Shown: piece after piece, positions 12,425 through 62,429 of the stretch
Numbering within the stretch: position 1 is the stretch's first letter
How the letters are laid out: the number at the start of each line of letters is the position of its first letter
From: Povalibacter uvarum
GTDB taxonomy: Bacteria > Pseudomonadota > Gammaproteobacteria > Steroidobacterales > Steroidobacteraceae
Direction: 5' to 3'
Assembly (NCBI RefSeq): GCF_014202975.1
Contig: NZ_JACHHZ010000002.1
Coordinates: 868,001-932,000 of the forward strand
Length of the DNA: 64,000 nucleotides
Notes under the pieces: generated by a model
Told to the model about the DNA's origin: nothing
What the model saw: the letters and a program-made list of their open reading frames with translations, nothing else
The model's database searches: none
Translations under genes and position numbers: made by a program

Positions 12425-12514
12425 AGCGACGAGCGGCGAGCAATGAGCAGCGAGCCAGAAGGGAAGCGGCTTTCTTCTTCCGGCTCGTAGCTCGCAGCTT
12501 ACCGCTCGTCGGCT
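12425..12514. repeat. Heptad-word hairpin (copy 1), word NRCGAGC
   Basis: The left arm reads in 7-base steps (GACGAGC, GGCGAGC, AATGAGC, AGCGAGC). The complement of the right arm reads GACGAGC, GGTAAGC, TGCGAGC, TACGAGC, so the two arms pair over about 40 bases with scattered mismatches. It starts six bases after the proS stop and ends five bases before the transporter start. Confidence 0.75.
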
Positions 12515-12519
12515 CCTCC

Positions 12520-13416
12520 ATGTCCCCTCCCTCCCGCGCCTTCCTCCAGATCCACTTCTGCGTGGTTCTGTGGGGATTCACGGCGATCCTGGGCAAGCTG
12601 ATCACCCTGCCCGCCGTCACTCTCGTGTGGTGGCGCATGGTTCTGGTCACCGGTGCGCTGCTGCTCATCGGGCGATTCTGGGCGGGACTCAGGCACCTGC
12701 CGCGCAAGTTGATCTGGATCTACGCCGGTACCGGCGTCATCGTGGCATTGCACTGGGTTACTTTCTACGAATCAGTGAAGCTCGCGAATGCTTCGGTGGC
12801 AGCTACCTGCATGGGGCTCACGCCGGTCTTCGTGGCGTTCGTCGAGCCCTGGATCGCGCGCAGAAAGTTCGATGCACGCGAGCTGATCTTCGGTCTCGCG
12901 GTGATTCCGGGCGTGATGCTGGTCGTGGGCGGCACGCCGACCGGGATGCGCACTGGCATCGCGGTGGGGGCAGTCTCGTCTTTTCTCGTCGCTGTCTTCG
13001 GTTCGCTGAACAAGCGCTACATCGGCGACAGCGATGCGTTGAGCGTCACGGGTATCGAGATGGGGGCGGGCGCGATTGCGATGACGTTGCTGGTCCCGCT
13101 CATCATGGCCGAGAGCCAGGCGTTCGTGCTGCCGTCACAGAGCGATGCGATGTACCTGGTGCTCCTCGCAATCGGCTGCACCTTGCTGCCATTCGCGTTG
13201 TCACTCGTCGCGCTGCGCCAGTTGAGCGCCTTCAGCACCGCGCTCGCGATCAACATGGAACCCGTGTACGCGATCGTGCTCGCCATCCTGCTGCTGGGAG
13301 AGCAGCGCCAGCTCGATCCGGCGTTCTACCTGGGCGTCGCGATCATCGTCGGCGTCGTGTTCAGCCACCCCCTGTTCGTACGCAGGAAGCCTCCTCCTGT
13401 TGCGGTCCCGCCCTGA
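12520..13416 (+). CDS. DMT-superfamily transporter, EamA family
   Basis: A 298-residue inner-membrane protein with about ten hydrophobic segments in two EamA halves (PF00892-type). The first half contains WGFTAILGKLI and WWRMVLVTGALLLI; the second contains the typical TALAINMEPVYAIVLAILLLGE. The family exports small metabolites or amino acids, but the substrate cannot be read from sequence. It follows proS with the heptad hairpin in between, and its 3' end lies 19 bases from the convergent LytTR regulator. Confidence 0.9.
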   Translation: MSPPSRAFLQIHFCVVLWGFTAILGKLITLPAVTLVWWRMVLVTGALLLIGRFWAGLRHLPRKLIWIYAGTGVIVALHWVTFYESVKLANASVAATCMGLTPVFVAFVEPWIARRKFDARELIFGLAVIPGVMLVVGGTPTGMRTGIAVGAVSSFLVAVFGSLNKRYIGDSDALSVTGIEMGAGAIAMTLLVPLIMAESQAFVLPSQSDAMYLVLLAIGCTLLPFALSLVALRQLSAFSTALAINMEPVYAIVLAILLLGEQRQLDPAFYLGVAIIVGVVFSHPLFVRRKPPPVAVPP

Positions 13417-13435
13417 GAAGGGAGAAGAGTCCCCT

Positions 13436-14260
13436 CTAGGGCCGACGCTGCAGGAGCTGGTCAACCCGGTCGCGATAAGAACGGCTCAGCTTGATCTCCT
13501 GACCATCCTCCAGCGTCAGGAAGTATTCCCCGTTCGTGTGCGGACGCAGGCGGCGGACGCGCTTCACGTTCACGATCGTCGAGCGATGCACGCGCTGGAA
13601 GATTTTCGGGTCCAGGATCGCGGCGAGGGATTTCATCGTCTCGCGCAGGACGTAGGTGCGGCCTTCCGCGTGCACGCACATGTAATCGCCGGCTGCGTCG
13701 ATCCAGTCGATGGTCGCGACATTCAGTCGGACCGTCTCGCTGTCGTCGCGGATCGGCAGGATCTCCGCGTAGCGCTGTTCCTGCACCGGCTCGAGTTGTT
13801 CCCGCAGTGTCTGTTCATCGATCGAGCCTGCACCACGCGTGGCGGCGAGCAGGCTCATGAGCTTCTCACGCTGCGCGAGTGCATTGCGCTGGGCCCAGTG
13901 TTCGCGCACGCGATCGAGAGCCTGGGCGAAGCGGGCGTCGTTGATGGGTTTGAGCAGATAGTCGAGCGCGTGTGCTTCGAAGGCGTCGAGTGCGTAACGA
14001 TCGTAGGCCGTGACGAACACGATCATCGGCATCGATTCCTGCGGGACGCGGGCCAGCACGTCGAAACCCGACAGGCCCGGCATCTGGATGTCGAGGAACA
14101 TGAGATCCGGTTGCTCGGCATCGATGACGCTCAGGGCTTCGCGCCCGTTGACACACTGGGCGATGAGTTCGATGTCCGGGTGACTCTGCAGCCGCAGCTC
14201 GATGCCGCGGCGGGCCAGTTCTTCGTCGTCGACTACGATGGCGCGGATGGTTGAACTCAT
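13436..14260 (-). CDS. LytTR-family response regulator (LytR/AlgR type)
   Basis: 274 residues. The N-terminal receiver has VVDDEE (9-14), phospho-acceptor Asp57 in LMFLDIQMPG and lysine in YLLKPIND. A linker leads to a LytTR DNA-binding domain (about 165-270) containing IDWIDAAGDYMCVHAEG, VHRSTIVNV and LEDGQEIKLSRSYRDRV. Such regulators bind paired direct repeats upstream of target operons. The gene lies 28 bases after its cognate sensor (14289-15371), so the two form a two-component operon. Targets are unknown; the neighbouring urcA upstream region with repeated GCGGACA motifs is one candidate. Confidence 0.93.
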   Translation of the reverse strand: MSSTIRAIVVDDEELARRGIELRLQSHPDIELIAQCVNGREALSVIDAEQPDLMFLDIQMPGLSGFDVLARVPQESMPMIVFVTAYDRYALDAFEAHALDYLLKPINDARFAQALDRVREHWAQRNALAQREKLMSLLAATRGAGSIDEQTLREQLEPVQEQRYAEILPIRDDSETVRLNVATIDWIDAAGDYMCVHAEGRTYVLRETMKSLAAILDPKIFQRVHRSTIVNVKRVRRLRPHTNGEYFLTLEDGQEIKLSRSYRDRVDQLLQRRP

Positions 14261-14288
14261 GACGCTCGTCTCGAAAACTGTCTCTCTT

Positions 14289-15371
14289 TCATAGCGCCGG
14301 CGCGAACGCCGGGGCCCGTTCCGCCGGGAACTCCAGCGACACCTTCAGTCCCGGATTCGTGCCCGCGACCGCGACGTGCCCTCGTTCGCCGTATAGCACC
14401 TGCAATCGCTCGCGCGTATTACGGATGCCCACGCCGCGGCCATTCGTCAGCCGGCTCGGGTCGACCAGGCCCGGACCATCGTCGCCGACCGACAGTTGCA
14501 GGGTGGTGCCATTCACCCGGGCGGACACGCAGATGTGACCACCTTCCTCGCGTGGTGAGATCGCGTACTTGATGGCATTCTCGATCAGCGGCTGCAGCAT
14601 GAGGCTCGGCATCAGGATGTTCGTCGCTTCCTCGTCGATGTCGTGACGTACCGTCAGGCGCGAGCCGAACCGCATCTTCTCGATGTTGAGATACAGGTTC
14701 AGCGCTTCGAGCTCCTGGGCGACGGTGACTTTCTTCATCGGGTCCTGATCCAGCGTGTAGCGCAGGAACTCGGACAGCCCCGAAACCGCGGAGTTGGCGA
14801 CCGAGTTGCGGTTGTCGATGATCAGGGTGGAGATCGCATTCAGCGTGTTGAACAGGAAATGCGGATTGAGCTGGTAACGCAGCATCTTCAACTGCGCTTC
14901 CTGCGCGAGCGCGGAAGCACGCAGCGCGCTCTCGCGCTGCAGCTGCATCGATTCGTAGTACTTGAAGCCGAAGTAGAGCCCCATCCAGCACGCGAACAGG
15001 TACGTCGCGGTCATCGCACCGCTCAGGTACTCGTACCAGTGGACCATCGGCCAGTCCGACTCGACATATTTCTCGTAAGCGATGTTGATGATCACGCGCC
15101 AGATGAGCGCGGTGCCGTATGCCGCCGCGAGCGCGGAGCTGATGAGAACCGCAGGCGGCTTCGTCCACAGATAGCGGCCGAGATAGCGCAATGGCGCGCT
15201 CAGCAGGAACCCGGAGATCGTCGCGACGACGATGACGTTCTGGTACTGCGCCGCTTTGCCATACAGCAGAAAGCCGAGGTACTGCGAGATCGCGTAGCTG
15301 CTCCAGCCGATGATGTGCAGCGACCAGAACGCCAGGTCACGATTCTTCTTGAACAAGTGGGCGGTACTCAT
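14289..15371 (-). CDS. LytS/AlgZ-type sensor histidine kinase
   Basis: A 360-residue membrane sensor kinase. Four hydrophobic segments fill about residues 15-135. A short helix then leads to the HisK_5/LytS kinase signature YQLNPHFLFNTLNAISTLI, with the phosphorylated residue at His171. The ATPase domain follows (MLQPLIENAIKYAI, VGDDGPGL, GVGIRNTRERL). There is no separate extracytoplasmic domain, so the signal is probably sensed in or at the membrane. It is the first gene of a two-gene operon with the LytTR regulator. Confidence 0.92.
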   Translation of the reverse strand: MSTAHLFKKNRDLAFWSLHIIGWSSYAISQYLGFLLYGKAAQYQNVIVVATISGFLLSAPLRYLGRYLWTKPPAVLISSALAAAYGTALIWRVIINIAYEKYVESDWPMVHWYEYLSGAMTATYLFACWMGLYFGFKYYESMQLQRESALRASALAQEAQLKMLRYQLNPHFLFNTLNAISTLIIDNRNSVANSAVSGLSEFLRYTLDQDPMKKVTVAQELEALNLYLNIEKMRFGSRLTVRHDIDEEATNILMPSLMLQPLIENAIKYAISPREEGGHICVSARVNGTTLQLSVGDDGPGLVDPSRLTNGRGVGIRNTRERLQVLYGERGHVAVAGTNPGLKVSLEFPAERAPAFAPAL

Positions 15372-15840
15372 GACCTGTCCCGGCCAGTCCGGCCTTGTGG
15401 ATGAAACTGCAGCTTAAGCACTCGCTCTTTCCGCCCCCGACGCCTCGTCGCCCCCGCGGCACGTTTTGTCGCAATGAATGCTATCCGAAACCCGACCGTC
15501 ATGTCGTTTGCGCTCTTTCTGCAACGTGAGCCTGTAACTATCCCGCTCGCCGTCGTGTCCTGATCCTCGAGAGGCGATGGCCTGGCCGCATCGACTGCAT
15601 CGATACGGGGCAACTCGCCTGCGGACACTCGACTAGCGGCCCGCGGACATCAGCGGACACCGAAGCGGACGCAGGCGAGTCGCCGAGGCGATGGGCGAGC
15701 ACGACGAGCCGAAGAAACTCCGTTCGTGCGGGCGATCAAATCTCACGTAGCCGTTGCAACCATTTTCGCGGCGGCTGCATCTCAAGTTCGAACGCGCGCG
15801 CCGATGAGCATCACTACGGAATCAGGAACGGAGAAACATC
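15372..15840. promoter_or_regulatory. Divergent region, lytS-type kinase / urcA, with GCGGACA array
   Basis: 469 bases without a convincing gene. At 15613-15680 perfect 11-base arms ACTCGCCTGCG and CGCAGGCGAGT enclose four copies of GCGGAC(A/G) at 15621, 15643, 15653 and 15665. The same motif recurs three times upstream of the OmlA-like gene (58188-58232). The array may be a binding region for a regulator or a structured RNA leader; the sequence does not decide which. The AGGAACGGAG before the ATG at 15841 is a ribosome-binding site. Confidence 0.5.
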
Positions 15841-16209
15841 ATGTCATTCAAGTCAACGGTCACTTCCACAATCGCGAGCGTCATCGGCGTTGCAGCATTC
15901 TCATTGGTTGCGGCCAGCGCGCAGGCAGCGGAATCCCCCGCTCCGCGGATCACGGTGCAGCTCGCTGACTTCGATCTTTCGAAGTCGAAAGATGCGAAAG
16001 CGCTCTACACGCGTCTGCGCAGCGCGGCTCGCGGCGTCTGCAGCTCGATCGACGGCAACGATCTGCGCAGTCGTCGCGACAACCTCGAGTGCAAGCAGTC
16101 CGCCCTCGACAACGCCGTCGACGAAGTGGGCAACGCTCAGCTGAGCGCGCTGCATCGCTCTGAATCCGGCATCCGCATCGCATCGCGCAACGCGTCCGAT
16201 CGCAGCTGA
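15841..16209 (+). CDS. urcA: UrcA family secreted protein
   Basis: 122 residues. A signal peptide ends near AASAQA^AES (about residue 30). The mature part has the UrcA-family pattern: VQLADFDLSKSKDAKALYTRLRSAARGVC, a second cysteine in NLECKQSALDNAVDEV, and a basic/polar tail. UrcA proteins are small periplasmic proteins of unknown function, common in Caulobacterales, Sphingomonadales and Steroidobacter-like gammaproteobacteria. It stands alone opposite the LytS/LytTR operon and is followed by a strong terminator-like pair of stems. Confidence 0.88.
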   Translation: MSFKSTVTSTIASVIGVAAFSLVAASAQAAESPAPRITVQLADFDLSKSKDAKALYTRLRSAARGVCSSIDGNDLRSRRDNLECKQSALDNAVDEVGNAQLSALHRSESGIRIASRNASDRS

Positions 16210-16222
16210 TGCGCCTCGAATC

Positions 16223-16290
16223 CCCGATCGTGCCCGCGATCGGGTCGCCACCGGCGAGATCACCGAGCTGCGAATCGGTGTTCTCGCCGG
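16223..16290. terminator. Bidirectional stem-loop pair between urcA and the EamA gene
   Basis: Two stems: CCCGATCG...CGATCGGG (16223-16244), then a long composite stem with arms CCGGCGAGA/TCTCGCCGG and CACCGA/TCGGTG (16251-16290). They lie between convergent genes. There is no long T-run, so factor-independent termination is not certain. Confidence 0.6.
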
Positions 16291-16304
16291 ATGGTGCCTC
16301 CTGA

Positions 16305-17219
16305 TCATTCCGTTCGCGCCGGCGGCGTCTTCGGCACGCCGAGCCGGCTCTCGCGGATCGTGATGTAGAGCGTCGAGACGATGATGATCGATGCGCCGAT
16401 CATCGTGAGCGTGTTCGGGATGTCGCCGAACAGCACGTAGCCGAGAGCGACCGCGAAGATCAGCCGCGTGTAATCGACGGGTGCCATCACGGCCGCGTCG
16501 CCCTCCGCCATGCCTTTGATGTAAGTCCATTGCGTGATCGTGCCTAGCACGCCCATCGTCGCGAGCAACGCCAGATCGACGGTCGTCGGCCAGCGCCATA
16601 CGAACAGTGCGGGCGGCACGGCCAGCACGAATCCCAGCACCGCGGACCATGCCATGAGCGTCGTCGATGTGTGATCGCGTGTCATGAACTTCATGCCCGT
16701 GACCGTCAGCGCAACGAGCAGCGCCGATGCGAGTGCCGCGAGGACAGGAGCTTCCATCTCACCGTGCGCGGCGGGCTGCAACATCAACAACGCGCCGAGA
16801 AAGCCGACGACTGTCGCCGCGATGCGTCGCGGGCCGACCGCCTCCTTCAGGACGAAGGCGGCGAGCGGCACGAGCCACAGTGTCCGGGTGAACGACAATG
16901 CATTCGCATCGGCGAGCGGCAGCTTCGAATAGGCGTAGAACGCCAGGATCATTCCCATCGTCCCCGCCAGTGCGCGAAAGAGCAGGATTCCGGGGCGCGA
17001 CGTCCGCAGCGCGCCGGACGGATTGCGAATGATGATCGGCAGCATCACTACCAGACCAAAGGCCTGCCGATAGAAGGTCTGCAGCGTCGCGGGATAGTCC
17101 TCGCCCAGGAGCTTGATGAGCATCGTCATCACCGTAAAGGCGACGGCCGACAGCAGCATCCACAGCGCGCCGCGAGCATTCGGAGGCAGGCGGCGATAGG
17201 CGGCGGAGAGGGTGCTCAC
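16305..17219 (-). CDS. DMT-superfamily transporter, EamA family
   Basis: About 304 residues with ten hydrophobic segments in two EamA repeats (ALWMLLSAVAFTVMTMLIKLL opens the first; LTVTGMKFM and LIFAVALGYVLFGDIPN lie in the second). It is probably an exporter of small metabolites, substrate unknown. The frame stays open to an ATG at 17261, but I prefer the GTG at 17219 (MSTLSAAYRRLPPN), which has AAGAAG just upstream and removes an arginine-rich stretch atypical of the family. It is only distantly similar to the EamA protein at 12520. Confidence 0.88.
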   Translation of the reverse strand: MSTLSAAYRRLPPNARGALWMLLSAVAFTVMTMLIKLLGEDYPATLQTFYRQAFGLVVMLPIIIRNPSGALRTSRPGILLFRALAGTMGMILAFYAYSKLPLADANALSFTRTLWLVPLAAFVLKEAVGPRRIAATVVGFLGALLMLQPAAHGEMEAPVLAALASALLVALTVTGMKFMTRDHTSTTLMAWSAVLGFVLAVPPALFVWRWPTTVDLALLATMGVLGTITQWTYIKGMAEGDAAVMAPVDYTRLIFAVALGYVLFGDIPNTLTMIGASIIIVSTLYITIRESRLGVPKTPPARTE

Positions 17220-17329
17220 ATTCTTCTTGCGATACGGAAGGCGACGACCGTGCCGCCGCACGGTTGCGACTGTATCAGCAGAAGAGAGGATCGTGGGCTC
17301 CGCGGCTCACGACCGCAGAGCGGGAGAAA

Positions 17330-17473: not shown

Positions 17474-17538
17474 GGAAGGAGGCCTCGTTATAGGAGACAC
17501 ACTCGTACGCGGCGATGGTGGGGAAGGTTCCGGGACCG

Positions 17539-17570
17539 GTCGGCTGCCGGCTTCTGGCCGCTGGCCAGAG
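17539..17570. repeat. Half heptad-word element, word YGGCYGC
   Basis: 7-base steps CGGCTGC, CGGCTTC, TGGCCGC, TGGCCAG. Only one arm is clear; GTTCC (17528) and GGAAC (17575) flank it. The same word is used in the coding element at 26506-26540. Confidence 0.5.
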
Positions 17571-17581
17571 AGCAGGAACGA

Positions 17582-18268: not shown

Positions 18269-18275
18269 GGTCGGA

Positions 18276-18362
18276 GGGTGACGCGTGATGGGTGACGATT
18301 GCCGCGAGCGAGAATAGCAGACACGATCCTGCCGGCCGAAACGTCACCCGTCACCCGTCACC
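18276..18362. repeat. Heptad-word hairpin (copy 2), word GGGTGAC
   Basis: The left arm at 18276-18296 reads GGGTGAC, GCGTGAT, GGGTGAC. The right arm at 18343-18362 is the complement of GGTGACG repeated. The right arm supplies the last codons (VTGDG) and the TGA of the kinase gene at 18344, so the element overlaps coding sequence. Confidence 0.75.
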
Positions 18363-20413
18363 TTCTCTGCCTTCAACACTTCAGCCACCGCCTCGCCCAG
18401 CGCCGCGCTGTCGAACGGCTTGCGCAGCAGCGAAATCGCGCCGAGCATCGATTCGATCGTGGCGCTGTCGGCGTAGCCGGAAACCATCAGAATCCGCAAG
18501 TCTTTGCGGCGCTGCTGTGCTCCACGTGCGACTTCGGCGCCGTTCATGCCCGGCATCGCGAAGTCGACAATCAGCAGATCGAAAGGCTGCGCATCGAGCA
18601 GCTCGAGTGCCCCTGCGCCGTTGTCGATATCGGTGACGCGATAGCCGAGCAGGCGCAGCGACTCCGTGATGAAGCGGCGCACCTGGCGATCGTCATCCAC
18701 GATGAGGATGGAAACATCCCGCACGTCGCGAGGCGTCGGTACGGTCGGCGGATGGCTTCGCGCATGAGCGATGTATCCGGAGACGGAAGGGTTGGCGGCG
18801 GCGGGGAGCACCATCCGGATAGTCGTGCCTTGCGCGACTGCGCTGTCGATGAACAAAGTGCCGCCTGACTCGCGCATCACGCCATAAACCTGCGACAGGC
18901 CGAGACCTGTGCCATGACCGACGCGCTTCGTCGTGAAGAACGGTTCGATCGCGCGTGCACGGATCTCGTCGGGCATGCCGCTGCCGGTATCCGAAACGCG
19001 AATCTCCACGTAGGGACGTCGTTGCAGTTCGCGCAGATCGAGATCGACCACGCGATGTGTCGAGATGGACAGCGATCCGCCGGCGGGCATGGCATCGCGG
19101 GCATTGACGATGAGATTGAGCAGCGCGAGCTCGAGCTGATTGGCATCGCTCATCACATAGCGCGCGTCGGGACCGACGCTGATGCGCACAGAGATGGCGG
19201 GTCCCGCGGACTGGCGCAGCAGCGCGCCCATGCCATCGAGTAGTTGATCGAGATCCACTGTCGCGAGCTGCATGCGCTGGCTGCGTGAGAACGCCAGCAG
19301 TTGTGACGTCACTTTCGCTCCGCGCCGGGCAGCCTCGAGCGCGTTGTCGGCGAGGCGCTGGAGTCTCTCGTTGCCCTCGACCCGGTTCCGGATCATGTCG
19401 AGGTTGCCGATGATCGCGGTCAGCAGGTTGTTGAAGTCGTGCGCGATGCCGCCGGTGAGCTGGCCGACTGCCTCCATCTTCTGGGACTGGCGCAACGCTT
19501 CGTCGGCCCGGCGCCGCTCCGCCATGTCGCGCAGCACGAGCAGAACCAGGATTGCCGCGAGCGCCGCGCTGCCCAATCCCGCGATACCGGCAACGACGAA
19601 CGACCACGAGGTGGGAGTGTCGATCAGCGTCGATGCAACGGCAACGTGGGCGGACCAGCCAGACCAGGGTGATGTCTGGAAAGCGGTGTAGTTGCGGAAC
19701 CCCTCGTATGTCACGCCCCTGTAGAAGCCGCTCAATCCGGTGCTGGCCGCATCGCGCAGGACCTGCGTCGCCGGCTGGCCGACGCGCTTGGCATAGTCAT
19801 GCGTGCGCGCGACGAAGTTGCCGTGTCGATCGACAACGGCGGCGATCGTGGACTTGGGCACCTGCGAGAGCAGGATGTCCTGGAAAACAGTGGCCCGGAC
19901 GGAGGCGACGAGAACGAACCTGACCGTGCCGTCGCGACGCACCGGCACATAGACGTGCACGACGGGTTCTTCTTCCATCGTGATGCCGCCGATCACGGGC
20001 TCCATCGTCGAAGCCAGTCGCTGCGCGCTTTCGGTTCCGGGAAGCGCGGCTGGATGGGGCGGGGCGAAATCCCGGGCGACGTTGAAGATCTCCTGCGCAT
20101 GCTCGAGATCGTAGATGCGCAGCGTCAGCCAATGCGGATTGGCGGCGAGCGTGCGCTGCAGACGAGGGTGAAAGTTGGTCCAGTCGAGCGACTCGAAGTA
20201 GACGGACGAGCTGAGCATGTTCAACGCACGAACGTCGCCGCGCAGGCTGGCCTCGCTGAGGTTCACGACCGTGGAGCTGCGGCGCAGGGTCTCGGTCTCG
20301 ATCTGGGAGCGTTCGGCCCGCAGGAAATAGAAGGCGCCCACGGCCCCGAACACGATGGTCGGCAACGTTGCCGCGACCCCGAGGGCAATCAGGGAACGCC
20401 GAAAGAACTTCAT
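18344..20413 (-). CDS. Membrane-bound hybrid histidine kinase with periplasmic sensor
   Basis: 689 residues. TM1 is at about 7-31. A large periplasmic sensor region follows (about 32-268; two Cache-like halves, with VVDRHGNFVARTHDY typical of the membrane-proximal half). TM2 is at about 270-295. Then come HisKA with His325 in GGIAHDFNNLL, an ATPase domain with GTGLGLSQ, and a C-terminal receiver with DFAMPGMNG. A periplasmic small-molecule ligand is likely but unidentified. The receiver gives it no DNA output, so a separate phosphotransfer partner is needed. Its final five codons and stop fall in a heptad hairpin. Confidence 0.92.
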   Translation of the reverse strand: MKFFRRSLIALGVAATLPTIVFGAVGAFYFLRAERSQIETETLRRSSTVVNLSEASLRGDVRALNMLSSSVYFESLDWTNFHPRLQRTLAANPHWLTLRIYDLEHAQEIFNVARDFAPPHPAALPGTESAQRLASTMEPVIGGITMEEEPVVHVYVPVRRDGTVRFVLVASVRATVFQDILLSQVPKSTIAAVVDRHGNFVARTHDYAKRVGQPATQVLRDAASTGLSGFYRGVTYEGFRNYTAFQTSPWSGWSAHVAVASTLIDTPTSWSFVVAGIAGLGSAALAAILVLLVLRDMAERRRADEALRQSQKMEAVGQLTGGIAHDFNNLLTAIIGNLDMIRNRVEGNERLQRLADNALEAARRGAKVTSQLLAFSRSQRMQLATVDLDQLLDGMGALLRQSAGPAISVRISVGPDARYVMSDANQLELALLNLIVNARDAMPAGGSLSISTHRVVDLDLRELQRRPYVEIRVSDTGSGMPDEIRARAIEPFFTTKRVGHGTGLGLSQVYGVMRESGGTLFIDSAVAQGTTIRMVLPAAANPSVSGYIAHARSHPPTVPTPRDVRDVSILIVDDDRQVRRFITESLRLLGYRVTDIDNGAGALELLDAQPFDLLIVDFAMPGMNGAEVARGAQQRRKDLRILMVSGYADSATIESMLGAISLLRKPFDSAALGEAVAEVLKAEKVTGDG

Positions 20414-24096: not shown

Positions 24097-24200
24097 AAGC
24101 GGTTGGCGGTTAGCGGTTGGCGGTTAGTTCGGACGAGAAGACGGGGGAACAAGCCACGAGCCGCTCCGGTTCCGAACCAACCGCCAACCGCCAACCGCTT
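24097..24200. repeat. Heptad-word hairpin (copy 3), word GCGGTTR
   Basis: The left arm is four exact heptads alternating GCGGTTG and GCGGTTA, followed by GTTCGG. The right arm is the complement of three GCGGTTG units, beginning CCGAAC. Pairing is nearly perfect over about 30 bases, and TTTTCTTT follows the right arm. It lies between the divergently transcribed encapsulin and MoxR operons, not at a gene end, so it could insulate the two promoters. Confidence 0.85.
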
Positions 24201-26499: not shown

Positions 26500-27455
26500 A
26501 GAGATGGGCGACTGGCGACCGGCTGCTGGCTGCTGGCAAGGCGCGGGCCGCCAGCACTCAGTGGTTTTTCGCGGGCGCCGTCCTGCTAGCGAGTGGAGTC
26601 AGTGCGGATACGTATTCGCTGGTCGTCAGTGGGCTCGGTGGCGAGCCGGGCTATGAGCAGCGGTTCAGCGAACAGGCTGAGAAGATCGCGGCCGCGTCGC
26701 GCAATCTCACGGGCAGCGAAGCGACGACGACATTGCTGACGGGGGCGAAAGCCGATCGCGAGTCCGTGAGGCGCGAGCTGCGTTCGCTCGCTGCGAAGGC
26801 CGGGCCCGACGATGAAGTGATCATCACGCTCATCGGTCACGGAACGTTCGACGGCGAACAGTACCGGTTCAATCTGCCGGGTCCGGATCTCACCGCTGCC
26901 GAACTGGGCACGTTGTTCGATGCGCTTCGGGCACGGCGCCAGTTGATCGTGAATGCAACGAGCGCGAGCGGCGCCGTCGTCGACAGCTGGAAGCGTGAGC
27001 AGCGCCTCGTCATCACGGCTACGAAGAGCGGCGGCGAACGAACTGCGACACGCTTTGCCGAGCACTGGGTCAGTGCCCTCACGAGTCTCGAAGCCGACAC
27101 CAACAAGGACGACATCATCACGGCCACCGAGGCGTTCGAGTACGCCACGCGCAAGGTGACGGAGTCGTTCAAGTCCGATGCGCTCCTCGCCACTGAGCAC
27201 TCGCGTCTTTCCGGCGAGAACGCGGGGCGATTCCAGGTTGCGCGCATGGGCACGGCGGCTCGCGTGACATCCGATCCCGCGATGAACGAGATGTATGCGC
27301 AGCGCGTACGCATCGAGCGCGAACTGGATGCGGTGAAGGAGCGCAAGGCGTCGATGGTTGTGGACGCGTACTACGACGAGCTCGAAGGCGTGCTCGTCAG
27401 GCTCGCGCAACTGCAGCGGCAGATCGATGCGAAGCAACCGGCGGGGAGGGAATAG
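26496..27455 (+). CDS. Caspase-fold (C13/C14-like) protein, probable pseudoprotease, secreted
   Basis: About 319 residues from the GTG at 26496, which overlaps the upstream stop as GTGA and has AAGGTGGGG upstream. A signal peptide ends near SGVSA^DTY. The caspase-like core has LVVSGLGGEPGY, a histidine in VIITLIGHGTFDG, and a strand IVNATSASGAVVDSW. In active relatives that last strand carries the catalytic cysteine before S-G; here no cysteine is present. An EF-hand-like loop, DTNKDDIITATE, precedes AFEYA. Codons 4-15 come from a heptad repeat (26506-26540). An active protease with unusual geometry is unlikely but not excluded. Confidence 0.75.
   Translation: MKRWATGDRLLAAGKARAASTQWFFAGAVLLASGVSADTYSLVVSGLGGEPGYEQRFSEQAEKIAAASRNLTGSEATTTLLTGAKADRESVRRELRSLAAKAGPDDEVIITLIGHGTFDGEQYRFNLPGPDLTAAELGTLFDALRARRQLIVNATSASGAVVDSWKREQRLVITATKSGGERTATRFAEHWVSALTSLEADTNKDDIITATEAFEYATRKVTESFKSDALLATEHSRLSGENAGRFQVARMGTAARVTSDPAMNEMYAQRVRIERELDAVKERKASMVVDAYYDELEGVLVRLAQLQRQIDAKQPAGRE
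26506..26540 (+). repeat. Heptad-word array inside a signal-peptide coding region
   Basis: Five consecutive 7-base units GGGCGAC, TGGCGAC, CGGCTGC, TGGCTGC, TGGCAAG, followed by GGGCCGCCAGC, which can pair back with GCTGGC. They fall within the N-terminal codons of the caspase-fold gene. The same word occurs at 17539-17570. Confidence 0.65.
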
Positions 27456-38190: not shown

Positions 38191-38276
38191 GAGGCCGCGA
38201 GCTGTGAGCTGGTAGCCAGAGGGGCTCCGCTTCTCCTATTCTGGCTCGCCGCTCACAGCTCGTCGCTCATCGCCTC
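38191..38276. repeat. Heptad-word hairpin (copy 4), word YGYGAGC, after MoxR operon
   Basis: The left arm reads CGCGAGC, TGTGAGC, TGGTAGC, CAGA; the complement of the right arm reads GACGAGC, TGTGAGC, GGCGAGC, CAGAA. Outer ends GAGGC/GCCTC pair. It starts at the base after the DUF4159 stop and lies five bases before the next start. The word is close to that of copy 1 (12425). Confidence 0.75.
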
Positions 38277-38466: not shown

Positions 38467-38569
38467 GCCAGCTAGTCGGCTAGCGAGCTAGCCGCCAGCC
38501 CCAGGCCAATTTGCTGCAGCCGCTTTTTGTCTCTGGCCAATGGCCAGCCGGCTATTCTGGCTAGCTGGC
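38467..38569. repeat. Heptad/octad-word hairpin (copy 5), word CTAG-based
   Basis: Outer arms GCCAGCTAG (38467) and CTAGCTGGC (to 38569) pair perfectly. Inside, CTAG recurs at 8-base steps in the left arm, and GGCTATTCTGG lies in the right arm. Internal GGCCAATGGCC forms its own stem. It lies six bases after the small zinc protein. The same CTAGC word is used in the element at 62239-62429. Confidence 0.7.
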
Positions 38570-38688
38570 CGGCATCATGTGATCCGCTTCCCGTTTAGAC
38601 AGGTTTAGAGTTCATTCAGGTGCGCGGATGTAAGAGAGTGGCGTCTGGTCGGGAATAACAAGATTTCAGGAACCGTCAGGAGAACGGA

Positions 38689-41955: not shown

Positions 41956-42034
41956 AAGCCGCGAGCTCCCGTCATGATCACGAAACTGAACGCCGCCGGC
42001 TTCCGGCTCGCCGCTCATCGCTCACCGCTCGTTA
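41956..42034. repeat. Heptad-word element (copy 6), mostly one arm
   Basis: On the minus strand it reads AACGAGC, GGTGAGC, GATGAGC, GGCGAGC, then CGGAAGC. The opposing arm is short (AAGCCGCGAGC at 41956). It lies between convergent genes, and its heptads supply the last codons (TSGER) and the stop of the PD40 gene ending at 42015. Confidence 0.65.
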
Positions 42035-52233: not shown

Positions 52234-52369
52234 AAGAGTTTCCACGGGGAGCACGGGGACACATGGGGCGGAGCACACGAGCTCAACTGAAGTACTTGAT
52301 GCTCCGTGGATAAATCTCCGCCCCGTGCACCCCGTGGCCACCCCGTTCATGCCCCGTGGAGATTCTTTG
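52234..52369. repeat. Nonad-word hairpin (copy 2), word ACGGGG
   Basis: The left arm has ACGGGG steps (CCACGGGGAGC, ACGGGGACAC, ATGGGGCGG). The right arm complement has ACGGGGCATGA, ACGGGGTGGCC, ACGGGGTGC, ACGGGGCGG. Outer arms are AAGAGTTTCCACGGGG and CCCCGTGGAGATTCTTTG. It lies between convergent SDR and reductase genes and is expected to terminate both. Confidence 0.8.
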
Positions 52370-56752: not shown

Positions 56753-56877
56753 TATTTTGCAGTGCCGCGAGCGCCGCCGGACCGCGAGGTCTGTTACAAA
56801 GGATTTGCCCGCTGCACCGGCGCGGTGCTTTCATTGCGGTGCGTCGGCGAGGGCAGGCCGGCGAAACGGGAGAAAAG

Positions 56878-57633: not shown

Positions 57634-57637
57634 GAGG

Positions 57638-57707
57638 AAGAAAGATTCTCCACGGGGTACACGGGGAGCACCGGATCCCCGTGTCCCCCGTGGAAAATCT
57701 CTTTCTT
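57638..57707. repeat. Nonad-word hairpin (copy 3), word ACGGGG
   Basis: Near-perfect palindrome with outer arms AAGAAAGATT/AATCTCTTTCTT and inner CCACGGGG/CCCCGTGG. The left arm reads ACGGGGTAC, ACGGGGAGC; the right-arm complement reads ACGGGGGAC, ACGGGGATC. It fills the gap between convergent TetR and OmlA-like genes. Confidence 0.85.
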
Positions 57708-57718
57708 GATCTGTTGCC

Positions 57719-58180
57719 CTACCTCAGCGTCGGCACCTGAACCTCCGCGACGCGACGATCCTTGAGCAGCACGCTGCCGCCAAGGAAACCTGACGAGCCG
57801 ATCTCCATCGCATACAGCAACTGGCGTGTGCCGGAGTCGGCGGCGCCACGCATTGATGTCGGTGGGCCCAGGAGTCCGAGCACCTCCAGTTCCGTCATGC
57901 CCGGGCGGACGCGTTTCCAGGCGTCTGCGTTCAGCCATTCGGTGGAGGGTGCAGGCGCGGCGGAAGACGACGGCGCCGAACTGGGCCGATCACCGGCGCG
58001 GCTCGCCCGTTGCTGCAGTTCGTTCAGCTGCCGGGACAGGTCCTGCACCTGCCTTTCGATATTTCGCATGTCCTGCTCGAGCTTCATGACCTTGAAGTCA
58101 TCGGCGGCTGCGGCGGGTATGCGGGTCAGCGCCGCGGGCACAAGGAGCAGCATCAGCAACGCAACGTGGGACTGGCGCAT
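57719..58180 (-). CDS. Secreted coiled-coil protein with SmpA/OmlA-like domain
   Basis: 153 residues from the ATG at 58180 (signal peptide MRQSHVALLMLLLVPAALTR, cleaved near AAA^DDF). A coiled coil (MKLEQDMRNIERQVQDLSRQ, about 30-60) and a Ser/Ala/Pro linker precede a BamE/SmpA-like fold with WKRVRPGMTELEVLGLLGPP, the helix-Gly-Met pattern of that fold, and SSGFLGGSVLLKDRRVAEVQ. There is no lipobox. Three AAGYGTCCG motifs lie upstream. It may be an envelope assembly factor; the function is not established. Confidence 0.75.
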   Translation of the reverse strand: MRQSHVALLMLLLVPAALTRIPAAAADDFKVMKLEQDMRNIERQVQDLSRQLNELQQRASRAGDRPSSAPSSSAAPAPSTEWLNADAWKRVRPGMTELEVLGLLGPPTSMRGAADSGTRQLLYAMEIGSSGFLGGSVLLKDRRVAEVQVPTLR

Positions 58181-58187
58181 GGGGACT

Positions 58188-58232
58188 CCGGACACTTTGC
58201 TCGACGTAGCGGACACTTCGGGGCGGACGCTT
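58188..58232 (-). promoter_or_regulatory. Three GCGGAC motif copies upstream of the OmlA-like gene
   Basis: CCGGACACTT (58188), GCGGACACTT (58209) and GCGGACGCTT (58223), spaced 21 and 14 bases apart, directly upstream of the start at 58180. The core is the same as in the array at 15621-15671 upstream of urcA. This suggests a shared regulator or a shared structured leader. Confidence 0.45.
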
Positions 58233-58429
58233 CTGGCCATCCCATGGCCTGACCTTCGACGAGTCGTGATCGCGGCGCGATCAGTGACACCCCCGAACAT
58301 TGATCGGCATCGCCGACGCGGGCAAGTTGTCTGCTACCCGGCCGGCCGCTAGGCTTGCCCGCTGCCGAAAGAAACCGACTTATCGCCACAACTCGCGATC
58401 GAGTGTTCCGGATCCTGGAGTATCCAACG

Positions 58430-60493
58430 ATGAAATTTTCGCGTGCCGCCCTGGGCAGCGCAGCCGCCCTGATGGTTCTCGCTGCCTGCTCGCGTTCGCC
58501 CCAGACCTCGCCGACACCTGCCGAAACTCCGCCCCCGAAAGCCGTCATCGGCGCCTGGGGATTCGATCTCGACGGCATGGACCGGAGCATCAAGCCGGGC
58601 GATGACTTCTACAAGTTCGCGAACGGGAAGTGGCTGACGTCGAACACGATCCCGCCGGATCTCAGCTCGTGGGGCGCCTTCACGAAGCTCGCCCTCGAGG
58701 CCGAAGAACACGTGCAGGAGATCATCAAGACGCTGCCGGCGAATGCACCCGCGGGCAGTGCCGAGCAGAAAGTCCACGACTTCTATGAGTCGTATCTCGA
58801 TGTCGGCGCCATCGACAAGCTCGGCCTGGAGCCGGCCCGGCCCGCGCTGAACGATATCGCGGCCGCGAAGACGCATGCGGATATCGCGAAGCTGATGGGC
58901 CGCCCGGATCTCGGCCTCGACACACCCATCAACGTGTCGGTCACGATCGACGACAAGAATCCCGATCGTTACATCGTCGGCATCGGCCAGAGCGGCCTGA
59001 GCCTTCCCGAGCGCGACTATTACCTGAAGGACGATCCGGCGTTGAAGGAGATCCGTGCAAAGTACGTCGCGCACGTCGAGCGCATGCTCGCGCTGGCCAA
59101 AGAACCGGAACCGGCGAATCAGGCCAAGGCCATCCTCGACCTGGAAACACAGATCGCGAAGCGTCACTGGCCGGTGGCGAAGCGTCGTGAGCGCGAGCTG
59201 ACGTACAACCTGCGCACTCGCGAACAGCTCGATACGCTCGCGCGCAGCTATCCCTGGAAGGATCTGCTGGGCGCAGCCGGCTTCGATGATCAGAAGGAAT
59301 TCATCGTCGCGGAGCTCGACGCCGTCGAGGCGCTGGGCAAGTGGTTCACCACGGTGCCCGTGCAGCACTGGCAGAGCTACCTCAAGTACAACTACCTCGT
59401 CACTCACGGCGCCGTTCTGCCGCAGGCGATCGACGACGAGCGTTTCGATTTCTACAACCGCACGTTGAACGGACAGCAGCAGAAGCGCGAACGCTGGAAG
59501 CGCGCGGTGCAGACGCTCGATGGCGCTGTCGGTGAAGTGCTCGGTCAGCTCTACGTGAAGAAGTATTTCCCGCCGGAATCGAAGGAGAAGATGGTCGAGC
59601 TGGTGGAAAACCTGCGTCGCGCCTACGGCCAGCGCATCGACAACCTTCCGTGGATGACGGCGGAGACGAAGAAACTGGCGAAGGAAAAGCTCGCGACGTT
59701 CCGCCCGAAGATCGGCTATCCCGACAAGTGGCGGGACTACAGCAAGCTCGAAATACGCGCTGGCGACGCGTTCGGCAACGCGGTGCGTGCGCGCGTATTC
59801 AACGCGGAGTTCGATCGTGAGCGCCTCGGTCGTCCGACCGACAAGGACGAATGGTTCATGACGCCGCAGACCGTCAACGCGTATTACAACCCGCTCTTCA
59901 ACGAGATCGTGTTTCCCGCGGCGATTCTGCAGGCCCCGTACTTCGATCCCAACGCCGACGCAGCGATCAACTACGGCGGCATCGGCGGCGTGATCGGTCA
60001 CGAGATGGGTCACGGCTTCGACGACCAGGGTGCGAAGTCCGATGCACGCGGCATCCTGCGTACGTGGTGGAAACCCGAAGACGAAACAGCGTTCAAGAAA
60101 CTCGTCGACGCACTCGTCGGCCAGTACGACCAGTTCGAAGCGCTTCCCGGCCTGAAGTTGAACGGGCGCCTGACGGTCGGTGAGAACATCGGCGACCTCG
60201 GCGGCCTCACCGTCGCGCTCGAGGCCTATCACCTTTCGCTGGGCGGCCAGCAAGCTCCGACGCTCGATGGCTTCACCGGCGAACAGCGCTTCTTCATGTC
60301 ATGGGCCCAGGCATGGCGTGAACTTGCCCGTGACGAATCACTGCGCAACAAAGTGATGAGCGATCCTCACAGCCCCGCTGTCTTCCGCGTGCAAGGCGTC
60401 GTCCGCAACATGGACGCCTGGTACACCGCCTTCGACGTAAAGCCGGAAGACAAGATGTATCTGGAGCCGGAGAAGAGGGTGAGGATCTGGTGA
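58430..60493 (+). CDS. pepO: M13-family zinc metallopeptidase (PepO/neprilysin-like), lipoprotein
   Basis: 687 residues from the ATG at 58430 (GGAG upstream, lipobox LAAC near residue 21). The N-terminal M13 domain begins MDRSIKPGDDFYKFANGKWL. The catalytic domain has VNAYYNPLFNEIVFPAAILQ (substrate-binding NAYY), the zinc motif HEMGH at 524-528, the third ligand in GENIGDLGGL, and the C-terminal W. It degrades oligopeptides in the periplasm or on the outer membrane. It is divergent from the OmlA-like gene and nearly touches the convergent thioesterase (8-base gap). Confidence 0.96.
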   Translation: MKFSRAALGSAAALMVLAACSRSPQTSPTPAETPPPKAVIGAWGFDLDGMDRSIKPGDDFYKFANGKWLTSNTIPPDLSSWGAFTKLALEAEEHVQEIIKTLPANAPAGSAEQKVHDFYESYLDVGAIDKLGLEPARPALNDIAAAKTHADIAKLMGRPDLGLDTPINVSVTIDDKNPDRYIVGIGQSGLSLPERDYYLKDDPALKEIRAKYVAHVERMLALAKEPEPANQAKAILDLETQIAKRHWPVAKRRERELTYNLRTREQLDTLARSYPWKDLLGAAGFDDQKEFIVAELDAVEALGKWFTTVPVQHWQSYLKYNYLVTHGAVLPQAIDDERFDFYNRTLNGQQQKRERWKRAVQTLDGAVGEVLGQLYVKKYFPPESKEKMVELVENLRRAYGQRIDNLPWMTAETKKLAKEKLATFRPKIGYPDKWRDYSKLEIRAGDAFGNAVRARVFNAEFDRERLGRPTDKDEWFMTPQTVNAYYNPLFNEIVFPAAILQAPYFDPNADAAINYGGIGGVIGHEMGHGFDDQGAKSDARGILRTWWKPEDETAFKKLVDALVGQYDQFEALPGLKLNGRLTVGENIGDLGGLTVALEAYHLSLGGQQAPTLDGFTGEQRFFMSWAQAWRELARDESLRNKVMSDPHSPAVFRVQGVVRNMDAWYTAFDVKPEDKMYLEPEKRVRIW

Positions 60494-60501
60494 GAAGCTT
60501 C

Positions 60502-61290
60502 TCACCCAAACACCGCAAACAACTGCCGCGTCAGCGCCACCGGCTTTCCGTCGGGGGCGTTGAGCACTCCCGTCTGATTCACGTAGCCATCGCCGGCAGC
60601 GTCGAGGTCGGTGTCGATGCGCCACCACGCATCGGGCGGAAAATCGAAGCGGTGGTCGAAGAACTCCAGAGTCCACACTAGAGAGCTCGAAGGCGCGGGG
60701 GCGAGGAACATCGACATCGCGGGGGTGGGAATGCAGTCGATCAGTGCGACGACGTGCGATTCAGTCAGCGGTGTTGGATCACGATGGCGGATGAATGCTT
60801 TCGTCGGTGTACGTGGGGAGCCTGAGAAGGGCTTCGCGCCCTGCACCCACCGCACGGCGAAATGCTGAAGGAACTGCGGTGCGCCGTCCTTGAACTGGAC
60901 TTCGCGAGCTTCATCGACACCGCGTGGCGCAGGTGTCGGCTCGGGCTTCAGCTTCACCGCTGAAGCGCGTGGGCCGCCGTACACACCCACCACTGTCGCC
61001 GCGACCTGTCCTCCATCCAGCACATCGCAGTGTGCAATCGTCACTGCCTTGCCGACTCGCAGCACACGCGCATTGATCTGCCACGTGCCCGCTGTGGCCG
61101 GGCCCACGAACGTTGTCTGCAACGAACGCAACAATCGATCCTGCGGCACCAGCTTTCGCAGCACCTCGTTGCCGACGGCCGCGATCAATCCACCGAACAT
61201 CGCACGACCCTGGCCCCAGTCGTCGGTCACCGTCACCTGGAACGTCGAGCCGTCACCACGAATCGTCTGGAGAATCTCGGAGAGTGTCAT
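60502..61290 (-). CDS. Acyl-CoA thioesterase, double hotdog (TesB-like)
   Basis: 262 residues from the ATG at 61290 (MTLSEILQTIRGDGSTFQVT). Two hotdog halves follow: AMFGGLIAAVGNEVLRKLVP, then LRSLQTTFVGPATAGTWQIN in the first, and SLVWTLEFFDHRF with YVNQTGVLNAPDGKPVALTR in the second. It hydrolyses acyl-CoA thioesters; the chain-length preference is unknown. The open frame continues upstream to 61452 without coding features. Confidence 0.88.
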   Translation of the reverse strand: MTLSEILQTIRGDGSTFQVTVTDDWGQGRAMFGGLIAAVGNEVLRKLVPQDRLLRSLQTTFVGPATAGTWQINARVLRVGKAVTIAHCDVLDGGQVAATVVGVYGGPRASAVKLKPEPTPAPRGVDEAREVQFKDGAPQFLQHFAVRWVQGAKPFSGSPRTPTKAFIRHRDPTPLTESHVVALIDCIPTPAMSMFLAPAPSSSLVWTLEFFDHRFDFPPDAWWRIDTDLDAAGDGYVNQTGVLNAPDGKPVALTRQLFAVFG

Positions 61291-61602
61291 GAGCGCAGCG
61301 GAGCAATTGAACGAGCACGCAGAGTAACCGTCCTGCGAAGGACACTCCACTGGCGAAACGTCAGCCGGTTCGTCTGTTCCGCTACGCGAGGCGGAGGGTG
61401 CTGATTCAAGCGTCGTTTGCGCGCGCCTTCGGCCGGGGTGAACGTGGGGCAATTGTTGCGCCTGGGTAGCGATCCGTTACCGGCTGATACAAATCGCGGG
61501 CATTTCCCGCTTACGGCTTACAAAGCCGCGACAGCTTTCGCGTGGGTCGGTCCCTAGCATCTCCTGCATGGTTGAAGCATCGCCGATTCACCAGGAGGTG
61601 AA
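61291..61602. other. Divergent region, thioesterase / outer-membrane protein
   Basis: 312 bases with no gene. It must hold both promoters. A partly repeated GCTTACGGCTTACAAAGC lies at about 61510-61527, and CCAGGAGGTGAA before the ATG at 61603 is an almost ideal ribosome-binding site. I see no repeat family here. Confidence 0.4.
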
Positions 61603-62238
61603 ATGAAGACTCCCATCGAACCCGCCAAGACGGTACCGCGCACGCTGATTGCTGCGGGTGCACTCCTCGGCTTCCTCGCGACGGCGTCGACAACTGCTTT
61701 CGCCAGCGATCTCGGACTGTATATCGGCGCATCGTTCGTGCAGACGAAGTTCGAGCACGACTGGAACGAGCTTCCCGCTGGGCTGACGGTCCGCGACGTG
61801 GATGACGAGGATCAGGGCTTCAAAGTGCTGTTCGGCTGGCGGCCGATTCCGTGGTTCGCGCTTGAAGCGAGCTATGCCGACCTCGGCGCGGCGAGCGGCA
61901 ATACCAACGCCGTGTGCCTCGCGGTGCTGGGCTACCCGTGTCCGACCCGACTGTCGGCTGATGTTCAGTCCGCGCAACTCGCGGCGTTGGGCCTGTGGCC
62001 GGTCGGCGATTTCGATCTCTTTGCGCGTGCCGGCATTCAGCGATGGGAAGCGGATGCGGAGATCGGCGACGCCGTAACGGTGATCGCTCGCGCCAGGGAA
62101 GACGACACGGACCTCGTCTATGGTGTAGGTGCGCAGTATCGATACAAGCGTGTCGCCGTGCGGCTCGAGTTCGAACATCTCGAGCTGGAGGAGTCTGAAG
62201 CGGAGGCGGTGTCGATGGGAGTGATGTACAGCTTCTGA
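61603..62238 (+). CDS. Small outer-membrane beta-barrel protein
   Basis: 211 residues. The signal peptide ends at STTAFA^SDLG (about residue 34). An eight-stranded barrel of the OmpA/OmpW-like kind follows, with alternating strands such as DLGLYIGASFVQTKF, FKVLFGWRPIPWFALEASYA, FDLFARAGIQRWEADA and DLVYGVGAQYRYKRVAVRLE. It ends in the canonical C-terminal Phe (VMYSF). A cysteine pair (AVCLAVLGYPCP) sits in an external loop. There is no peptidoglycan-binding domain. The function is unknown. Confidence 0.85.
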   Translation: MKTPIEPAKTVPRTLIAAGALLGFLATASTTAFASDLGLYIGASFVQTKFEHDWNELPAGLTVRDVDDEDQGFKVLFGWRPIPWFALEASYADLGAASGNTNAVCLAVLGYPCPTRLSADVQSAQLAALGLWPVGDFDLFARAGIQRWEADAEIGDAVTVIARAREDDTDLVYGVGAQYRYKRVAVRLEFEHLELEESEAEAVSMGVMYSF

Positions 62239-62429
62239 AGAAGCCAGCTAGCCGCTAGCTGTTAGCCGGCTAGCCAGAGTGTTGTCTTTCTGTGGGTCCG
62301 ACTTCAGCCGGACGTCATGCGAAGCATCCCTTCGGCTTACGTCCGGCCAAAGCCGGGCCCACAACAAGACGCGAGCGTCCGATCTCGTCTGGCTAACGGC
62401 TAGCTGGCTAGCCGGCTAGCCGGCTAGCC
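62239..62429. repeat. Heptad/octad hairpin (copy 7) with a REP-like element nested in its loop
   Basis: The left arm at 62239-62281 reads AGCTAGC, CGCTAGC, TGTTAGC, CGGCTAGC, CAGA. The right arm at 62388-62429 is TCTGGCTAAC, GGCTAGCT, then GGCTAGCC three times. The arms pair over about 36 bases. The loop holds the TGTGGGTCC-family copy at 62291-62363. The element lies between two co-directional genes. Confidence 0.8.
62291..62363. repeat. REP-like double hairpin, TGTGGGTCC family (copy 3)
   Basis: TGTGGGTCCGACTTCAGCCG, then GTCCGGCCAAAGCCGGGC and a terminal CCCACA. The centre GTCATGCGAAGCATCCCTTC is the inverse of that in copy 2 (46088). It is nested between the arms of the CTAGC heptad hairpin. 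Confidence 0.85.

What the first reader, a model, noticed from the sequence alone, without database searches (positions are those of the whole stretch)
12425..62429. A family of intergenic hairpins built from locus-specific 7-base words
Seven or more elements (12425, 17539, 18276, 24097, 38191, 38467, 41956, 62239; one more in coding DNA at 26506) have arms made of 7-base units, sometimes 8. The word differs between loci (GCGGTTR, GGGTGAC, NRCGAGC, YGGCYGC, GGCTAGC), yet in the complete elements the two arms of a hairpin carry the same word in inverted orientation. Ordinary REP elements conserve sequence between loci; here the architecture is conserved and the sequence is not. That points to a generating mechanism, such as templated slippage plus inversion, or to selection on hairpin shape only.
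Basis: seen in the sequence. Interest (0 to 1): 0.85.

Follow-up and report, generated by a model that had tools for sequence, protein, structure and literature searches.

The report
Paired seven-base-word hairpins between genes
Hundreds of DNA hairpins sit between genes in this bacterium; their arms repeat a seven-base word that is shared across the genome but replaced by other words in sister species, in some cases at the very same gene junctions.

Summary
The elements are real, but "locus-specific words" is wrong. The words belong to genome-wide classes: GAGCNRY has 363 and GCGGWTR 349 three-unit matches here. What varies is the species: relative G002 has 21 and 3 of those, but 199 of GGCKACW against 9 here. 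At ribF-ileS and mlaE-mlaF, congeners carry the same architecture with different words, others none. Two-arm GAGC/GCGGWT pairs are convergent in 36 of 36 cases. The two arms are not copies of each other, and neighbouring units of typical arms are less alike than chance, against templated slippage plus inversion. A sister pair shows whole elements gained at two junctions and, at one other site, a conserved loop between arms of another word. Best reading: a REPIN-like population of hairpin insertion elements with species-specific arms. A terminator role stays open for GCGGWTR, whose hairpins often have T-rich tails (13 of 43 arms). Closest published case found: convergent GGGAATC pairs of Xanthomonas (PMC4692102); the main words here lack GGG runs. 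The mobilising or arm-writing machinery is unidentified and was not searched for.

The parts
12425..12515 (.). Element 1, complete hairpin, word GAGCNRY; left arm about 12425-12459, right arm about 12480-12513; fills the gap between a stop codon (12419) and a start codon (12520)
   Evidence: the G002 ortholog of the gap carries a hairpin of another word, GGCKACA
17541..17568 (.). Element 2, single arm of TGGCNRC type
18270..18365 (.). Element 3, complete hairpin, word GGGTGAY; arms 18277-18297 and 18342-18362
   Evidence: no such arms in the stretches printed for six relatives, though in G002 the second neighbour gene was not found
24097..24200 (.). Element 4, complete hairpin, word GCGGTTR, between divergent genes
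   Evidence: G001 and G011 have a one-unit AACCGCTTCTTC sequence there, G002 none
26507..26538 (.). Element 5, single arm GGCKRCY at the junction of two co-directional genes
   Evidence: the G002 ortholog is a complete GGCKACW hairpin
38191..38276 (.). Element 6, complete hairpin, word GAGCNRY; starts right after a stop codon and ends just before a start codon
   Evidence: no arms in the stretches printed for six relatives; in G002 and G013 the downstream DNA differs
38467..38575 (.). Element 7, degenerate GGCTAGC-type arms; the core GCTAGC is self-complementary
   Evidence: fold not better than shuffles
41956..42031 (.). Element 8, one good GAGCNRY arm (about 42002-42031) and a left remnant, between convergent genes
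62239..62432 (.). Element 9, complete hairpin, word GGCTAGC; its loop holds a second palindromic repeat (GTGGGTCCG...CGGGCCCAC)

Best explanation
These are members of a dispersed family of small hairpin insertion elements, REPIN-like in population behaviour. An element is two convergent arms of about 3-5 degenerate 7-base units, purine-rich strand reading inward, closed by a short inner motif (often CAGA or CGGA) and a loop that differs at every copy examined. Species amplify their own few words, up to hundreds of copies. Elements are gained as whole units at gene junctions, where they fill the gap and may supply the stop codon; the same junctions are used in different species with different words. 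The arm word, not exact arm-to-arm pairing, is what is preserved, so I infer that a class-specific factor in trans recognises or writes the arms. Shown: word classes, polarity, species specificity, gain at two junctions, unlike loops. Inferred: mobility in trans and the factor.
For: Words per genome (GCGGWTR/GAGCNRY/GGCKACW): own 349/363/9; G002 3/21/199; G012 236/0/0; G011 70/0/0; G001 0/0/0. Two-arm GAGC and GCGGWT pairs: 36 of 36 convergent; over five classes 36 same class, 1 mixed. Same polarity elsewhere: in the 112 loci, 18 convergent, 0 divergent, 3 same-direction pairs; 7 of the 18 are Steroidobacteraceae, 11 others (10 Verrucomicrobiota, 1 Polynucleobacter). ribF-ileS: element in 5 of 13 congeners (own and G011 GCGGTTR/V; G012, G007, G013 NGTTGAC), no arms in 8; mlaE-mlaF: 4 of 11, four words; mutL: 3 of 14. 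G011 gains at ileS and mlaF are polarised by G001, G003, G008 and G010, all short or overlapping there. 48 loops show no mutual homology beyond a 13-base end match; 7 loops searched in two whole genomes match only themselves. Both G002 heptamer hairpins in the part syntenic with the window sit where the window has an element; the third has no counterpart in the window.
Against: No consistent target-site duplication: at L252 and L255 about 13-17 native bases are replaced, at L253 at most ATG is doubled. No transposase or other factor was searched for. At mutL the loop core of the G011 element is native DNA also present without arms in G001, G003 and G008, and at L254 the loop is shared but G001 has arms of another word; this fits arm loss or arm writing in place better than transposition of a closed unit. 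Loops without any source in the genome are odd for a copied element. Junction sharing rests on three junctions chosen because G011 has an element there.
Confidence: 0.47

Rival explanations
1. In-place writing and rewriting of arms: units are added, lost and replaced locally (slippage, strand switching or conversion between loci) around a passive native loop, so the site persists and the word drifts.
For: L254: loops of G011 and G001 homologous (score 21 vs shuffle mean 7.0, 0 of 5000), arms GCGGTTV vs GGTGTTS. mutL: native loop core with intact arms in G011, divergent arms in G010, none in G001/G003/G008. L126: left arm four GAT units, right arm five TAC units; L134: seven AAT units.
Against: Neighbouring units of typical arms share fewer bases than chance in both classes; the word is genome-wide, not local; the ileS and mlaF gains include the loop.
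Confidence: 0.25
2. Selection on an RNA hairpin at transcript ends or between cistrons (terminator, mRNA stabiliser, insulator), with the word free to drift.
For: Five of nine window elements fold far better than shuffles. GCGGWTR arms have T-rich tails: 13 of 43 with at least 5 T in 8 bases, mean 3.98, vs 1.5% and 1.55 for intergenic background. Purine-rich 5' and pyrimidine-rich 3' halves also in 38 of 43 loops (3 reversed).
Against: GAGCNRY arms show no such tail (0 of 43), though that count starts inside a degenerate outer unit. Arm differences in transcript orientation are A.C 32 vs G.U 16, the reverse of pairing selection. 4 of 10 two-arm pairs lie between divergent genes, where 51 of 207 gaps of 60 bases or more are divergent. 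The terminator scan is no evidence either way: it allows loops of 3-8 bases only.
Confidence: 0.18
3. G-quadruplex-forming repeats, as proposed for Xanthomonas GGGAATC.
For: Same unit length, about four units, convergent pairs, gene-end placement (PMC4692102).
Against: By word content GAGCNRY, GGCKACW and GCGGTTR have no GGG run, yet the architecture is the same. GGGTGAC and the period-9 CACGGGG words do have GGG.
Confidence: 0.02
4. Chance or coding artefact.
For: 7 of 36 matches of at least two units lie inside genes.
Against: Period-7 excess over neighbouring periods, reversed-pattern controls 7 vs 363 and 19 vs 349, polarity 36 of 36.
Confidence: 0.01

Closest known systems
GGGAATC / GGGGA(C/T)T heptamer repeats of Xanthomonas and Nostoc (Rehm et al. 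2015, PMC4692102; passages and sections 13 and 16 read)
   Same: 7-nt units, preference for four, convergent inverted pairs (70 and 75 cases in two Xanthomonas genomes), near gene ends within 0-50 bp: on the coding strand after the stop, on the non-coding strand before the start
   Different: One G-quadruplex-capable word studied there, most repeats kept between the same genes in two Xanthomonas; here several words, the main ones without GGG runs, species-specific, and different words at the same junction
REPINs (Bertels and Rainey 2011, PMC3116915; abstract and passages read)
   Same: Two inverted conserved ends around a spacer, many copies, proposed unit of movement, several sequence groups per genome
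   Different: REPIN ends are palindromic REPs tied to RAYT transposases; here arms are 7-base arrays with internal stems of at most 3 pairs (three example arms), loops of widely varying length with no shared sequence; RAYT not searched for
Four-heptamer elements of Geobacter metallireducens (PMC2700814; passages read)
   Same: Tandem heptamers (consensus GGACCGG) at 49 places
   Different: No inverted pairing mentioned in the passages seen; also within genes
TAACTGA repeats of Beggiatoaceae (PMC4679880; passages read)
   Same: Abundant intergenic heptamer arrays
   Different: Direct repeats; one inverted case in 170 sets

Membership tests
REPIN/REP | Two inverted copies of a conserved end around a spacer, high copy number | tested here: met
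   many arms are single in the strict pattern (26 of 36 elements)
REPIN/REP | Each end is itself a palindromic REP with a GTAG (or CGTC) tag | tested here: not met
   longest internal stem 2-3 pairs in three example arms; GTAG in 5 and CGTC in 2 of 43 GCGGWTR outer flanks, 0 and 0 of 43 for GAGCNRY
REPIN/REP | RAYT transposase in the genome, next to the elements | not tested
MITE | Target-site duplication on insertion | tested here: inconclusive
   three sites compared: replaced bases at L252 and L255, at most ATG doubled at L253
MITE | Copies share an interior | tested here: not met
   48 loops; 7 loops against whole genomes
Slippage-made simple sequence repeat | Adjacent units identical more often than chance | tested here: not met
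   typical arms show the opposite at base level; with rare long arms 18 of 242 vs 14.3 expected
Xanthomonas-type convergent heptamer pairs | 7-nt units, convergent pairs at gene ends | tested here: met
Xanthomonas-type convergent heptamer pairs | G-quadruplex-capable word (GGG runs) | tested here: not met
   word content of GAGCNRY, GCGGTTR and GGCKACW; no folding assay
Intrinsic terminator | T-run after the stem | tested here: inconclusive
   13 of 43 GCGGWTR arms and 0 of 43 GAGCNRY arms with at least 5 T in 8
Intrinsic terminator | Not between divergent genes | tested here: not met
   4 of 10 two-arm pairs lie between divergent genes

The most novel reading that the evidence does not exclude
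A genome-wide arm-writing system: an unknown enzyme with a species-specific template or specificity adds about four 7-base units to both sides of a gene junction (or a break), with the purine-rich strand running inward as if both 3' ends had been extended, and can overwrite old arms with the current word. This would explain a fixed period with changing words, the same polarity in different words and in Verrucomicrobiota and Xanthomonas, loops without a source and replaced native bases.
Probability: 0.12. Interest if true: 0.92.

Novelty: new variant of a known kind. Interest (0 to 1): 0.62.

Why it matters
Heptamers are reported as the most abundant 5-11 nt repeat class in most genomes surveyed and have been put down to polymerase slippage (cited in PMC4679880 and PMC4692102) or linked to G-quadruplexes. 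Here the same architecture appears with words that lack GGG runs, with neighbouring units less alike than chance, and with different words in sister species at one junction. That makes the origin of these repeats a testable question: compare junctions across a genus and look for the factor that sets the word.

Tried and rejected
RNA pairing selection was tested by wobble direction and not found. Capture of loops from elsewhere in the genome: 7 loops tried, none found. Rfam: no match in the window at gathering thresholds. The idea that the words fit one formula (GCNRYNR or looser) was considered by eye and dropped as post hoc. Sharing of G011 and own element sites: 12 G011 loci against the part of the own genome held locally gave one case, ribF-ileS. 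The third G002 heptamer hairpin has no counterpart in the window. Two of the ten G011 loci compared with G001 had no flank in the pieces fetched (L257, L259); L258 and L263 were not compared. G004, G006, G007 and G008 were not among the 120 genomes. Literature: the listings (one search returned none) showed no title or abstract start on multi-word paired heptamers; the library holds open-licence papers only and I read passages or sections of seven papers.
Full report
What was checked. The window is bases 868001-932000 of contig 2 of a 6.32 Mb genome. The family is Steroidobacteraceae by inference: G011, listed as the same genus, has a 1912170-base contig, the length of Peristeroidobacter agariperforans KA5-B scaffold 2. 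All nine elements are present as described; five are complete hairpins that beat all 200 shuffles, four are single or degenerate arms.

More than chance. In the window plus 20 stretches of 20 kb (464 kb), 4-mers repeated three times at spacing 7 number 134, against 11-22 at spacings 4, 5, 8, 10, 11, 13 and 14. There are 50 inverted repeats against 5 in one shuffle. Of the 50, 14 have a clear period 7 and 7 a clear period 9 (CACGGAG/CACGGGG words); the left arm is purine-rich in 13 of 14 (the exception, L049 12954, is at 0.48) and in 6 of 7 (one equal); of the other 29, 17 have a pyrimidine-rich left arm. Many of those look like ordinary palindromic REPs.

Words are genome-wide classes. GAGCNRYGAGCNRYGAGC has 363 matches (7 for the reversed pattern) and GCGGWTRGCGGWTRGCGG has 349 (19 reversed) in this genome; matches overlap within an arm, so loci are fewer. 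In 54 GAGC arms anchored on the inner end, 170 of 183 triplets between GAGC cores fit N-purine-pyrimidine, and 46 of 54 arms have three or four such units. Of 47 GCGGWTR arms with at least two units, 43 have three or four. Both classes end inward in a related motif (GAGCCAGA; GTTCAGA, GTCAGA, GCAAGAG, GTTCGGA).

Polarity and pairing. Pairs of GAGC or GCGGWT arms within 300 bp: 22 and 14, all convergent; the looser GGC pattern gave one convergent and one same-direction pair, and many arms have no partner in the strict pattern (32 GAGC, 19 GCGGWT). Across five classes 36 pairs are same-class and one is mixed. The two arms of one element match at variable positions no more than shuffled partners (81 of 165, 49%, vs 45.9 +- 3.7%; 397 of 2000 shuffles as high, 18 pairs; 22 of 41 vs 49 +- 5%, 12 pairs). 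Adjacent units share fewer bases than expected (144 of 387 vs 169 +- 9.4; 40 of 111 vs 55.2 +- 5.2, 7 of 5000). Results the other way: identical adjacent triplets in the set are 9 of 129 vs 12.2 +- 3.1 (not significant), and over all 128 GAGC matches, long arms included, 18 of 242 vs 14.3 expected (5 of 216 vs 12.7 without arms of five or more units, but that expectation counts the terminal CAG unit). L126 has four GAT units left and five TAC units right, L134 seven AAT units, so slippage occurs. Oriented by co-directional genes, arm differences are 32 A.C and 16 G.U (unoriented 37 and 30). So neither recent inversion nor pairing explains the variable positions, and slippage does not explain the typical arm.

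Loops. 48 loops (36 own, 12 G011) have no mutual homology beyond a 13-base end match. Seven loops (four own, three G011) match only themselves in the two whole genomes. One own loop (L062) contains a common palindromic REP. Of 43 loops long enough, 38 have a more purine-rich left half and 3 the reverse (mean 0.60 vs 0.40).

Gene context and tails. A home-made gene caller on 464 kb gives 386 genes and 365 gaps. Of 36 GAGC/GCGGWT elements of at least two strict units, 29 lie in gaps (22 co-directional, 5 divergent, 2 convergent) and 7 within genes; 10 are two-arm (6 co-directional, 4 divergent), 26 single. Elements 1 and 6 of the window run from just after a stop codon to just before a start codon. 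The eight bases outside the arm hold at least 5 T in 13 of 43 GCGGWTR arms and 0 of 43 GAGCNRY arms, against 1.5% of intergenic 8-mers; the GAGC count starts inside a degenerate outer unit. This leaves a terminator-like role open for the first class.

Species specificity. In 120 genomes of the family, words per genome (GCGGWTR/GAGCNRY/GGCKACW) are: own 349/363/9, G002 3/21/199, G012 236/0/0, G011 70/0/0, G003 10/0/0, G010 2/0/0, and none in G001, G005, G009 and G013; outside the genus no genome has more than 11. G002, the closest of 40 relatives by protein P0001 (95%), has mainly another word.

Orthologous junctions. Window element 1 (GAGCNRY) corresponds in G002 to a complete GGCKACA hairpin in the same gap; element 5 (one arm) to a complete GGCKACW hairpin; elements 3, 4 and 6 have no arms in the G002 stretches printed, though at 3 and 6 the second neighbour differs in G002. 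Elements 2, 7, 8 and 9 were not resolved. Both heptamer hairpins of G002 in the syntenic part are at window element sites; the third has no counterpart in the window. At ribF-ileS (gene names by recall from the protein sequences) 5 of 13 congeners have an element: own and G011 with GCGGTTR/V, G012, G007 and G013 with NGTTGAC; in all five I read the upstream stop codon inside the first units; eight have no arms. At mlaE-mlaF 4 of 11: G011 GCGGTTV, G012 GGCGATA/GGGGATA, G002 TGGCKRC, own a GAGCNRY left arm only. At mutL 3 of 14: G011 GCGGTTV, G010 divergent arms, G007 with GGGGATA-like left and GCGGTTA right arms. Leaving out G011, by which the junctions were chosen, 9 of 35 are occupied. With a flat density of 8% (about the own-genome value, 29 of 365 gaps) the binomial chance is 0.0014, and with 12% it is 0.02; true densities differ by genome, so this is only a guide.

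Gain and rewriting. G011 and G001 are 87-97% identical in the flanks. Of ten G011 loci compared, eight had both flanks in the G001 pieces. G001 has no arms at seven: 13 bases at L252, a stop/start overlap at L253, 31-64 bases between aligned ends at L255, L256, L261 and L262, and 248 bases at L260 (mutL) with only the loop core. At the eighth (L254) it has a GGTGTTS array around a homologous loop (score 21 vs shuffle mean 7.0, 0 of 5000). G003, G008 and G010 share the short state at ileS and mlaF, so G011 gained there. At mutL the loop core is significantly alike in G001, G003, G008 and G010 (0 of 2000 shuffles each), so arms were lost or added around native DNA. Both whole gain and arm change are therefore seen; I give whole-element gain more weight because ileS and mlaF are polarised by four genomes, but the arm-writing reading is open.

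Breadth. Pairs of such arms there are 18 convergent, 0 divergent and 3 same-direction; 7 of the 18 are Steroidobacteraceae and 11 are others, 10 Verrucomicrobiota and one Polynucleobacter. Other hits are long perfect arrays without a partner (output partly cut).

Comparison with the known. Convergent heptamer pairs near gene ends were described for GGGAATC in Xanthomonas, with a preference for four units and no assigned function (PMC4692102). That paper cites the proposal that heptamers arise from polymerase slippage. The present elements share that anatomy, and their main words lack GGG runs. They behave like REPINs (PMC3116915) but fail the palindromic-end test, and the RAYT link was not tested. 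I therefore file them as a new variant of a known kind, not as REPINs.

Noticed in passing
window 57643-57700, 52242-52337; L033, L034, L039, L043, L047, L050: A second class of hairpins has period 9 (CACGGAGNN, CACGGGGNN) with the same purine-inward polarity; G002 has CGCAAARNN-like ones.
   Followed up: partly
window 681-749, 764-846, 8636-8703, 63170-63254: Ordinary palindromic REPs (CGTCATTCCCGCG..., GTGGGTCCGGC...) resembling the CGTC-tagged repeats of PMC3733652; one such palindrome lies in the loop of element 9.
   Followed up: partly
L067 about 440-620: Two heptamer elements of different words flank what looks, by recall, like the small SRP RNA.
   Followed up: no
L126, L134: Rare arms with runs of identical units (GAT x4 opposite TAC x5; AAT x7), so slippage acts on single arms.
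   Followed up: partly
L029 about 1520-1585: The loop of one GAGC element encloses a GC-rich hairpin with a short T-run that looks like a normal intrinsic terminator.
   Followed up: no
L148, L162, L190, L200: In Methylococcales, Planctomycetota and other hits, long perfect heptamer arrays occur, some near arrays of other words (GAATGGT, GAAACTT), unlike the short degenerate arms here.
   Followed up: no
G012: G012 has 12 matches to the reversed GAGCNRY control pattern and none to the pattern itself; perhaps another word.
   Followed up: no
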